Made by a program: the position numbers and the translations under genes. From Flavobacteriaceae bacterium (GTDB taxonomy: Bacteria; Bacteroidota; Bacteroidia; Flavobacteriales; Flavobacteriaceae): a stretch of DNA of 64,000 bases. Positions 48,034 through 54,335 of this stretch are shown here, one piece after another. The notes under the pieces are model-generated. The model was not told the origin of the DNA, searched no databases, and was given only the letters and a program-made list of their open reading frames with translations. The DNA is taken from positions 1 to 64,000 of the forward strand of contig JAFMLE010000004.1 of NCBI GenBank assembly GCA_017852395.1. Reading direction: 5' to 3'. The stretch's first letter is position 1; each line of letters opens with the position of its first letter.

Positions 48034-48543
48034 TTATAAATTGTGTTTTTGGTTAAGGTCCATTTGGTTGTAAAAACCCAAATCTTTTTCGGTCAGTTGC
48101 TTTACCCAAAAGGCGATTTGCCCGGTATGATACGAACAATGTTCTATGGCATGTAAGGCGACACCTACACCGGTCAACTCAAAAGCCTGAACAGAATATA
48201 CATTTAAAAAATCCGCGTCAGTCGCATTTTGGAGTACTCTTTGGGCCGCATCTATGGTCCCATCGAGACGGTCAAGCAATTCTTTTTTTGAAAATCCCGA
48301 GCGGAGATCAAACTCGCGATCGCGGTCTCTAATGTCTTTTTGATGACCCAATGTAGTGATCAAATACTGATGCATATTTCCGCAAAGATGCAACAGCTGA
48401 TTGCCCAAGGCATTGCCAACGGCATTGGGACGTTGCCAAATTTGTTCTTCAGAAACGGACTCTAGTGCTTTATAGATCATCCGTCGGCTCTCATCCAAAC
48501 GATACAGGCAATTTTCTACAAACGTGGCGTTCCATTTATTCAT
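48034..48543 (-). CDS. DinB-superfamily protein embedded in the his operon
   Basis: Helical-bundle protein with [10 protein letters not shown] and [25 protein letters not shown] overlaps the hisA stop. Confidence 0.85.
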
Positions 48544-52006: not shown

Positions 52007-53316
52007 TTTTTCAAATCATTTAAACGAAGGGTTACGGCATTTTTGTGGGCTTCAAGTCCTTCTGCAGCGGCCATTAGTTCTATCGCTGGTCCCAAGATTT
52101 CGAGTCCTTCGGCCGATATTTCTTGAAAAGTAATGGCCTTAAGAAAACTGTCCAAATTGACTCCACTATACTGCCTCGCATAGCCATTGGTAGGCAGCGT
52201 ATGATTGGTACCTGATGCATAATCTCCTGCGCTTTCGGGCGTATAATTCCCTACAAAAACTGATCCTGCATTGTTAATTGACCCAGTATAGGCAACTGGA
52301 TTTTCCACACAAATGATGTAATGTTCTGGACCATAGGCATTGATAAATTCTTGGGCCTCTGTTGCTTGATCAAAAAACACCGCCTTAGAATTTTTTAGGG
52401 CCTGCTCGGCAATGGCCTTGCGAGGCAACAGTGGCAATTGCTGGGCAATTTCTTTTTCTACGGCATCCAAAACAACGGTAGAATTACTCACCAGAATCAC
52501 CTGACTATCAATACCGTGTTCGGCTTGCGATAATAAATCGGCAGCAACAAAGGCGGGATTGCAACTCGTGTCTGCCACCACCAAGAGCTCACTGGGGCCA
52601 GCAGGCATATCAATAGCAACATGATGTTGCGTTGCCATTTGTTTGGCAACGGTTACGTATTGATTGCCAGGGCCAAAAATCTTATCTACTTTCGGAATGC
52701 TTTCTGTACCAAAAGTAAGTGCAGCAATGGCTTGCGCGCCACCAACCTTGAAGATTTTTTTAATGCCGCAACGTTGTGCTACATAAAGAATTTCTGAGGC
52801 AATTTTGCCTTCTTTATTAGGAGGTGTACATAGTACAATTTCTTTACACCCTGCAAGTTGAGCAGGTATGGCTAACATCAAAAGGCTCGAAAATAAAGGG
52901 GCTGTACCACCAGGAATATACAAGCCTACTTTTTCTATGGGGCGTTTTTCTTGCCAACAACGAACCCCTTTTTGGGTATCTACACTGATGGGTTTGGATT
53001 TTTGTGCCGCATGAAAAGTCTCAATGTTCGTATAGGCCAGATCAATGGCGTCTTTTAAAGCGTCTGAAAGCGCATCGATGGCCGCATCAAACTCTTCATC
53101 TTTGGCACGTAAATGCGTTATTGTAACCTGATCAAACTTTTGAGTGAAGGCTTGCAATGCGACATCTCCAGCAGTTTTGACCTCGTTGAAAATCGTTTTT
53201 ACAAGGGGCTCTAAGCTTTCAAAAGAGGCCGTGGGTCGTGCTGTTAAGGTGGACCAGGTATCGCGTGCTGGCACTAAAAATCGTTGCATCATAGGACCAT
53301 TTTTTCGATTGGACAA
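52003..53316 (-). CDS. hisD: Histidinol dehydrogenase (likely start at M(MQRF), about 53292)
   Basis: GLYIPGGTAPLFSSLLMLAIPAQLAGCKEIVLCTPP, KIFGPGNQYVTVAKQ, DMPAGPSELLVVAD, GTNHTLPTNGYARQYSGV. Confidence 0.97.
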   Translation of the reverse strand: MSNRKNGPMMQRFLVPARDTWSTLTARPTASFESLEPLVKTIFNEVKTAGDVALQAFTQKFDQVTITHLRAKDEEFDAAIDALSDALKDAIDLAYTNIETFHAAQKSKPISVDTQKGVRCWQEKRPIEKVGLYIPGGTAPLFSSLLMLAIPAQLAGCKEIVLCTPPNKEGKIASEILYVAQRCGIKKIFKVGGAQAIAALTFGTESIPKVDKIFGPGNQYVTVAKQMATQHHVAIDMPAGPSELLVVADTSCNPAFVAADLLSQAEHGIDSQVILVSNSTVVLDAVEKEIAQQLPLLPRKAIAEQALKNSKAVFFDQATEAQEFINAYGPEHYIICVENPVAYTGSINNAGSVFVGNYTPESAGDYASGTNHTLPTNGYARQYSGVNLDSFLKAITFQEISAEGLEILGPAIELMAAAEGLEAHKNAVTLRLNDLKN

Positions 53317-54140
53317 ACCAAAATATCTTCTGCTCCTGCCGCTTTTAGTGCATCAATTACTTCCCAAAATGTACCCGCATCAATAACCGAATGAATCGAG
53401 CTCCAACCCTCTTGTGCTAAAGGCAAAACGGTGGGGCTTTTTAGTACGGGCAAAATTTGTGTGATCGCTGCAATACAATCGTTAGGAGCATTGAGTAGAA
53501 TATATCGGGACTTTTTGGCCCGAAGAACGGCTTCAATTCTAAAAAGTAACTTATCAATAAGTTGTTTGGATGCGCTGGTTATTTTGGGGCTTTGCGCCAA
53601 GACTGCCTCCGAAACCAACACCTTTTGCACTTCTTTCAAGTTGTTTTTAAAAAGGGTACTTCCACTCGATACAATATCACAAATGGCGTCGGCCAGTCCA
53701 ATATTAGGGGCAATTTCGACCGAACCGTTGATGATGTGTAAGTCTGCTTGTAGGTCATTTTCTTTTAAAAATTTATTGACCGTGTTTGGATATGAAGTGG
53801 CAATACGTTTGCCCTGCAGATCGGCAAGCGAACGGTAGGGAGTGCCTTTGGGGACCGCAAGCGATACACGACACTTAGAAAACCCCAGCTGGGTGACCAC
53901 GCTAAGGTCTTCCCCTTTTTCGACCAAAAGGTTTTCGCCAATAATGGCCAAGTCTGCTACACCATCTCGGAGATATTGCGGGATGTCGCCATTGCGCAAA
54001 TACAATACCTCTAAAGGGAAATTTAATGCGCTGGCCTTAAGCTGATCTTTACCGTTCTGAATGGTAATCCCGCAATCTTTTAGCAATTTGAGGGACTCCT
54101 CGTGGAGCCTCCCGGATTTCTGAATGGCTATTTTTATCAT
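53289..54140 (-). CDS. hisG: ATP phosphoribosyltransferase
   Basis: KIAIQKSGRLHEESLKLLKDCGI, GVADLAIIGENLLVEKGEDLSVV, GSVEIAPNIGLADAICDIVSSGSTL. Confidence 0.97.
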   Translation of the reverse strand: MIKIAIQKSGRLHEESLKLLKDCGITIQNGKDQLKASALNFPLEVLYLRNGDIPQYLRDGVADLAIIGENLLVEKGEDLSVVTQLGFSKCRVSLAVPKGTPYRSLADLQGKRIATSYPNTVNKFLKENDLQADLHIINGSVEIAPNIGLADAICDIVSSGSTLFKNNLKEVQKVLVSEAVLAQSPKITSASKQLIDKLLFRIEAVLRAKKSRYILLNAPNDCIAAITQILPVLKSPTVLPLAQEGWSSIHSVIDAGTFWEVIDALKAAGAEDILVCPIEKMVL

Positions 54141-54149
54141 TTTTTGAAA

Positions 54150-54180
54150 TAAAAAAAACCCGTTTGATACTCAAACGGGT
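54150..54180 (-). terminator. Intrinsic terminator/attenuator immediately upstream of hisG
   Basis: Transcript-sense ACCCGTTTGA-gta-TCAAACGGGT followed by T8; lies between the leader ORF and the hisG ATG (54140). Confidence 0.88.
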
Positions 54181-54220
54181 CGGTTATATATTAGGGTACA
54201 ACACATCTACCGCGCTTGAG
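54165..54220 (-). promoter_or_regulatory. Predicted antiterminator pairing of the his leader
   Basis: Transcript CUCAAGCG (54220-54213) can pair with CGUUUGAG (54177-54170), 8 bp including one G-U, extendable by CGG (54212-54210)/CCG (54183-54181). This sequesters the 5' arm of the terminator. Confidence 0.7.
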
Positions 54221-54260
54221 CTCGGAAAATTAAATGTGTATGTATATATTTCATTTGCAT
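54207..54260 (-). CDS. Candidate his leader peptide MQMKYIHTHLIFRAQAR
   Basis: 17-codon ORF with CAT-ACA-CAT (His-Thr-His), about 5 codons before the antiterminator segment; stop lies just beyond it. Confidence 0.7.
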   Translation of the reverse strand: MQMKYIHTHLIFRAQAR

Positions 54261-54264
54261 AGTG

Positions 54265-54272
54265 CAAAAATA
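54265..54272 (-). promoter_or_regulatory. -7 element TATTTTTG, exactly 4 nt before the his leader ATG
   Basis: TATTTTTG-cact-ATG on the reverse strand. Confidence 0.55.
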
Positions 54273-54335
54273 ATGGATTATTGAATATTAAAAAACTTTT
54301 CGTGTTTCTTTTTTAGATAAAGCCAAAGGTTGGAT

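What the first reader, a model, noticed from the sequence alone, without database searches (positions are those of the whole stretch)
54138..54275. Apparent complete ribosome-mediated attenuator controlling the his operon
Directly in the sequence (reverse strand): a -7 promoter element; a 17-codon ORF MQMKYIHTHLIFRAQAR with CAT-ACA-CAT; then CTCAAGCG..CGG, able to pair with CCG..CGTTTGAG; then the competing hairpin ACCCGTTTGA-gta-TCAAACGGGT followed by T8 and the hisG ATG. The two structures share 54170-54177 and exclude each other. A ribosome stalled at the second His codon would leave CTCAAGCG free, giving antitermination. A ribosome at the stop codon would cover it, giving termination. This matches classic amino-acid attenuation logic but uses only two His codons separated by Thr, far fewer than the seven-His enterobacterial leader.
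Basis: partly seen in the sequence, partly recalled or inferred. Interest (0 to 1): 0.78.

Follow-up and report, generated by a model that had tools for sequence, protein, structure and literature searches.

The report
Histidine operon attenuator of flavobacteria
A short histidine-containing leader gene and two competing RNA hairpins sit just before the histidine-making genes, and the same device precedes hisG in all 128 related flavobacterial loci checked, so it is very probably a real but classic attenuation switch that lets ribosomes stalled for lack of histidine turn the operon on.

Summary
On the minus strand there is a TAnnTTTG -7 box, a 17-codon ORF (MQMKYIHTHLIFRAQAR), an antiterminator strand at the end of that ORF, and a terminator with T8 just before hisG of a complete his operon. 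All 128 Flavobacteriales hisG loci examined carry a leader ORF with 2-6 His codons plus a terminator; control operons almost never have a His-rich short ORF (2 of 104). The terminator covaries. The antiterminator is conserved within the family and, across orders, changes sequence while keeping complementarity. Co-transcriptional folding gives antitermination with the ribosome at the His codons (p=1.00) and none at the stop codon (p=0.00). This is classic ribosome-mediated attenuation; a 2021 flavobacterial transcriptome paper had flagged a structured 5' element at hisG. Two less expected points: the predicted start site falls on the leader ATG (leaderless), and in 68 relatives, not the window, a fifth segment about 14 nt before the hisG ATG pairs with the terminator arm and loop and covaries with it (26 loops, at least 30 changes), hinting at a second, translational lock. 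In vivo regulation is untested.

The parts
54265..54272 (-). -7 promoter box TATTTTTG (consensus TAnnTTTG)
   Evidence: consensus and its position -12 to -5 from PMC9723704; found at 126 of 127 leaders
54260..54260 (-). predicted transcription start, the A of the leader ATG (leaderless mRNA)
   Evidence: inference: box end at -5 puts +1 at 54260; not measured
54207..54260 (-). leader peptide ORF MQMKYIHTHLIFRAQAR*, control codons CAT 54242-54240 and CAT 54236-54234
   Evidence: conserved in 128 of 128 loci; control
54231..54244 (-). segment 1 (TACATACACATTTA), 5' arm of the 1:2 hairpin, contains both His codons
   Evidence: 1:2 fold, mean z -3.1 over 66 loci
54197..54209 (-). 3' arm of the 1:2 hairpin (TAGATGTGTTGTA), overlaps the stop codon
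54209..54220 (-). segment 2, antiterminator 5' strand CTCAAGCG.CGGT, overlaps the end of the leader ORF
54170..54183 (-). segment 3, CCGACCCGTTTGAG: antiterminator 3' strand and terminator 5' arm (shared)
54158..54167 (-). segment 4, terminator 3' arm TCAAACGGGT
   Evidence: 99.1% of cells paired, 5 pairs with changes on both sides
54151..54158 (-). T8 tract of the intrinsic terminator
53289..54140 (-). hisG, first gene of the operon; ATG about 17 nt after the terminator stem
   Evidence: TIGR00070/TIGR03455
46679..53316 (-). rest of the operon: hisD, hisC, hisB, hisH, hisA, an unassigned 169-aa ORF, hisF, hisIE-like ORF
   Evidence: hisIE by inspection only

Best explanation
It is a classic 1:2 / 2:3 / 3:4 ribosome-mediated transcription attenuator of the his operon. 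A ribosome starts on the leader ORF as soon as its 5' end appears. If charged tRNA-His is scarce it stalls on the CAT codons, which breaks the 1:2 hairpin and leaves segment 2 (CTCAAGCGCGG) free. Segment 2 pairs with segment 3 as soon as 3 is made, the terminator cannot form, and RNA polymerase reads on into hisG. If histidine is plentiful the ribosome reaches the stop codon and covers segment 2; segment 3 then pairs with segment 4 and transcription ends at the T8 run about 10 nt before hisG. Shown: anatomy, conservation, complementarity, covariation, geometry. Inferred: start site, stalling, histidine-dependent termination.
For: Leader plus terminator in 128 of 128 loci, 2-6 His codons each, with a control of 2 of 104 other operons having a short ORF with 3 or more His. 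Segment 2 overlaps the end of the ORF: median 9 nt from the last His codon to segment 2 (10-90% range 0-12), and segment 2 ends near the stop codon. Terminator covariation: 16 cells with changes on both sides against 1.4 in shuffles, 0 of 500. Antiterminator: 89.1% of cells paired in register against 19-54% when slid. Across orders, segment 2 with its own arm 3 averages -10.5 kcal/mol against -7.7 when permuted, 0 of 10000, although the sequences differ. 1:2 hairpin: mean z -3.1, 95% of loci below -1. Folding with arm 4 not yet made: p(2:3)=1.00 in the window (mean 0.79 over all loci) with the ribosome at the His codons, and 0.00 with it at the stop; with arm 4 made, p(3:4)=0.98. Full his operon downstream. 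A structured 5' element at hisG and leader-peptide clues at amino-acid operons were seen in the F. psychrophilum transcriptome (PMC9723704).
Against: Only two His codons in the window, the low end of 2-6. At equilibrium on the full leader the terminator wins even with a stalled ribosome, so the switch must be kinetic, as in other attenuators. Within the family the antiterminator is supported mostly by conservation, because segment 3 hardly varies: 7 cells with changes on both sides against 3.2 in shuffles. Without any ribosome the window still favours 2:3 before arm 4 exists, so super-attenuation is not predicted clearly. There are no transcript data for this organism.
Confidence: 0.93

Rival explanations
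1. Dual control: besides transcription attenuation, segment 3 governs hisG translation. In long-spacer relatives it pairs with a fifth segment at the hisG ribosome-loading region; in the window and its clade the terminator hairpin itself lies in that place.
For: Segment 5 in 68 of 86 long-spacer loci (duplex -11 kcal/mol or stronger). One representative per distinct loop (26): own pairing -17.2, permuted -11.15 (sd 0.56), 0 of 10000. Its 3' end lies 14 nt (IQR 13-15) before the ATG. At least 30 loop changes on the hisG tree. In the 42 short-spacer loci the terminator ends a median 17 nt before the ATG. bS1 contacts mRNA at -12 to -15 and structure tunes initiation in F. johnsoniae (PMC6847099).
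Against: Equilibrium folding of readthrough RNA favours 3:4 (mean p 0.83) over 3:5 (0.16) and shows no change in start-site accessibility between ribosome states. Segment 5 is absent in the window. 18 long-spacer loci lack it. Distances to the terminator and to the ATG are about equally constrained.
Confidence: 0.4
2. The terminated leader RNA acts in trans on hisG mRNA through the terminator loop and segment 5, like an antisense small RNA.
For: The same covarying complementarity; a trp attenuator leader peptide with functions in trans is known in Sinorhizobium (PMC7298713, title and abstract).
Against: The pairing sequence is mostly locked in a stable terminator stem, only a few loop bases being free; not possible in the window, which lacks segment 5.
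Confidence: 0.1
3. Attenuator without peptide control: a plain terminator or a protein- or tRNA-binding leader (for example a T-box).
For: The terminator alone would be compatible.
Against: His codons conserved in position in 128 of 128 loci, His excess absent upstream of other operons, 1:2 hairpin built on the His codons, no Rfam match above a curated cut-off.
Confidence: 0.03
4. Chance or degenerate relic in the window, only two His codons left and no longer functional.
For: One His codon fewer than L002 and L003.
Against: All pairing elements intact, same fold response as relatives; the relatives L004, L044, L049 and L055 also have H-T-H.
Confidence: 0.03

Closest known systems
Enterobacterial his operon leader (Rfam His_leader RF00514)
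   Same: His-codon leader peptide, exclusive antiterminator and terminator, upstream of hisG (comparison from general knowledge).
   Different: Two His codons here against seven; no covariance-model match; predicted leaderless leader ORF; terminator close to hisG ATG.
Bacteroid-trp leader (Rfam RF01692)
   Same: Amino-acid leader peptide attenuator in the same bacteria; trpE leaders of relatives match it (L160, L172), with WWW peptides.
   Different: Trp instead of His, different sequence; the his leader does not match it.
Structured 5' element upstream of hisG in Flavobacterium psychrophilum (Guerin et al. 2021, PMC9723704)
   Same: Very probably the homologous element; reported as conserved in other Flavobacteriaceae genera, without Rfam hit; leader-peptide attenuation clues noted for amino-acid operons in general.
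   Different: The passages read give no peptide, antiterminator, covariation or segment 5; supplements could not be read.
Bacillus subtilis trp leader (TRAP), from general knowledge
   Same: Readthrough transcripts refold to restrain translation of the first gene, the logic proposed here for segment 5.
   Different: Protein-mediated, not ribosome-mediated; only an analogy and not tested.
Leaderless cysteine-rich uORFs of mycobacteria (PMC4633059)
   Same: Leader peptides on leaderless mRNAs proposed as attenuators.
   Different: Other phylum, other amino acid; there supported by ribosome profiling, here only predicted from the promoter box.

Membership tests
Ribosome-mediated amino-acid transcription attenuator | Short leader ORF with codons of the regulated amino acid | tested here: met
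   2 His in 17 codons; 2-6 in 128 of 128 loci; control 2 of 104 with 3 or more
Ribosome-mediated amino-acid transcription attenuator | Cognate biosynthetic operon directly downstream | tested here: met
   hisG, D, C, B, H, A, F by NCBIfam, hisIE-like ORF by inspection
Ribosome-mediated amino-acid transcription attenuator | Intrinsic terminator between leader and first gene | tested here: met
Ribosome-mediated amino-acid transcription attenuator | Antiterminator excluding the terminator, freed by a stalled ribosome and covered by one at the stop codon | tested here: met
   (computed, not measured)
Ribosome-mediated amino-acid transcription attenuator | 1:2 hairpin containing the control codons | tested here: met
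Ribosome-mediated amino-acid transcription attenuator | Readthrough changes with supply of the amino acid | not testable with these tools
   needs reporter or Term-seq
Rfam His_leader RF00514 | Match to the covariance model | tested here: not met
   not among matches at gathering score or E up to 10
Rfam Bacteroid-trp RF01692 | Match to the covariance model and Trp codons | tested here: not met
   no match in the window, none at the his leaders of L105 and L009, while trpE leaders L160 and L172 match
T-box riboswitch | T-box covariance model match | tested here: not met
   no Rfam match

The most novel reading that the evidence does not exclude
In most Flavobacteriales the his attenuator has a five-segment design: the arm that chooses between antiterminator and terminator has a third, covarying partner placed about 14 nt before the hisG start codon, so that one ribosome-sensing event sets both transcription into hisG and translation of hisG. 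The window's clade reached the same end by having the terminator close to the hisG start codon without segment 5. The sensing ribosome starts on a leaderless mRNA.
Probability: 0.38. Interest if true: 0.62.

Novelty: new member of a known kind. Interest (0 to 1): 0.42.

Why it matters
It places His-peptide leaders upstream of hisG widely in Bacteroidia, a class whose amino-acid regulation has few described elements in Rfam, and gives a defined RNA family that Rfam lacks. Two features are testable open points: attenuation from a leaderless leader ORF in bacteria that largely lack Shine-Dalgarno sequences, and a covarying fifth segment at the hisG start that suggests coupled transcriptional and translational control.

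Tried and rejected
Rfam at gathering score and at E up to 10: nothing above a curated cut-off; the top low-score hit (NsiR1, 29.4 against 39 bits) is taken as a terminator-like chance match. Equilibrium folding of full readthrough transcripts with ribosome constraints showed no switch; the stepwise version with arm 4 not yet made did. The idea that segment 5 sequesters the hisG start codon was considered: its pairing with the own start (-5.6) is only slightly better than with swapped starts (-4.1, sd 0.3) and would give the wrong sign of regulation, so it was set aside. The idea that segment 5 is a constant DNA motif was rejected because the loop part covaries. A look for segment 5 at trpE leaders found none. 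Full-text searches for his attenuation in Bacteroidetes found no direct paper; Lopatovskaya et al. 2010, cited in PMC4833913, was not read and may contain predictions for this phylum.

Full report
What is there. hisG, D, C, B, H, A and F are assigned by NCBIfam, and a hisIE-like ORF ends the operon.

Conservation. 110 hisG loci came from two searches of relatives and more from a phylum-wide one. In all 128 Flavobacteriales-type loci annotated, a leader ORF with 2-6 His codons lies upstream of a terminator. A frequent peptide form is MRNxNTHHHFYTCxQAR. Applying the same search for His-rich short ORFs to regions upstream of trpE, ilvD, thrA and pheA gives 3 or more His in 2 of 104, against 118 of 128 for hisG. 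The window's H-T-H is a local reduction: L002 has HVHIH and L003 HVHTH at the same place. Most other Bacteroidia hisG genes sampled also have His-rich leader ORFs (for example MKRYVHHHAIRVSPGKPR in L134), with quite different antiterminator and terminator sequences.

Structures. On an alignment of 66 diverse leaders the terminator helix is paired in 99.1% of cells, with 16 cells changed on both sides against 1.4 in shuffles. The antiterminator is paired in 89.1% of cells and falls to 19-54% when slid; it covaries little inside the family because segment 3 is almost invariant, but between orders its own pairing beats all of 10000 permuted pairings.

Mechanism. With the second His codon in the A site, the ribosome, by the usual footprint of about 15 nt from the P site (general knowledge), covers to about 54224, leaving 54220 onward free; at the stop codon it covers segment 2 fully. 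Folding with those constraints and arm 4 not yet transcribed gives p(2:3)=1.00 at the stall and 0.00 at the stop in the window; over all loci 88% exceed 0.5 at the stall and none at the stop. Once arm 4 exists the terminator dominates (0.98), so the decision is kinetic. This is classic attenuation; the histidine response itself is not shown.

Leaderless start. In F. psychrophilum the TAnnTTTG box lies at -12 to -5 (PMC9723704). In the window the box ends 4 nt before the ATG, so the predicted start is the A of the leader ATG. In 78 of 126 leaders the gap is 8 nt or less, a predicted 5' UTR of 4 nt or less, whereas only 5.5% of F. psychrophilum mRNAs are leaderless. This is a prediction from promoter position only.

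Segment 5. In relatives with a spacer of mostly 38-60 nt, a segment before hisG is complementary to the terminator 5' arm, the loop and sometimes part of the 3' arm. 68 of 86 long-spacer loci have a duplex of -11 kcal/mol or stronger. For 26 distinct loops the own pairing averages -17.2 against -11.15 permuted, 0 of 10000. First tests with shuffles gave z -31 and with swapped loci z -10. The hisG tree needs at least 30 loop changes among these loci. Near relatives show paired changes: GAGTACATC/TTGTATTC in L058 against GAGCACATC/TTGTGCTT in L069, and GAGTATATC/GATATACTC in L122 against GAGTAAATC/GATTTACTC in L123. The segment ends 14 nt before the ATG (IQR 13-15). Since it is made after the termination point it must act after the decision. 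I propose that it lets a free segment 3 restrain hisG translation on leaky transcripts, while 2:3 pairing frees it; equilibrium folding does not show this, so the function is a guess of moderate strength. The window's clade has a short spacer and no segment 5; there the terminator stem itself ends about 17 nt before the ATG.

Known or new. Rfam has no family for it; trpE leaders of the same group match Bacteroid-trp RF01692. Guerin et al. 2021 reported a conserved structured element upstream of hisG and leader-peptide clues at amino-acid operons, so the attenuator itself is anticipated. I file it as a new member of a known kind, with segment 5 and the leaderless start as its less expected features.

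Noticed in passing
L105, L026, L109, L058, L069 and 63 further loci, 14-30 nt upstream of hisG ATG: Fifth segment complementary to and covarying with the terminator arm and loop; absent in the window.
   Followed up: yes
54265-54260: Promoter box position predicts a leaderless leader-peptide mRNA in the window and in many relatives.
   Followed up: partly
48034-48543: 169-aa ORF between hisA and hisF inside the his operon, no NCBIfam match; looks DinB-like by eye only.
   Followed up: partly
L174 (own genome, trpE upstream): Own genome also has a trp leader, MNLQTTKNWWWKTTQC, with a terminator 15 nt before trpE; WWW leaders occur in most relatives.
   Followed up: partly
L218-L240 upstream of thrA: Leader ORFs rich in Thr and Ile (such as GTTTNITTLWG), suggesting thr attenuators; terminators mostly not found by my scan.
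   Followed up: partly
L148-L152: Class-level hisG loci with His-rich leader ORFs (several ending HHRR) but no intrinsic terminator found before hisG: possibly another output mechanism.
   Followed up: no
L137, L142, L143: Loci with leaders ending HHFHHSS and no clear T-tract terminator found; shared CACCC..CCGGTGA sequence, unexplained.
   Followed up: no
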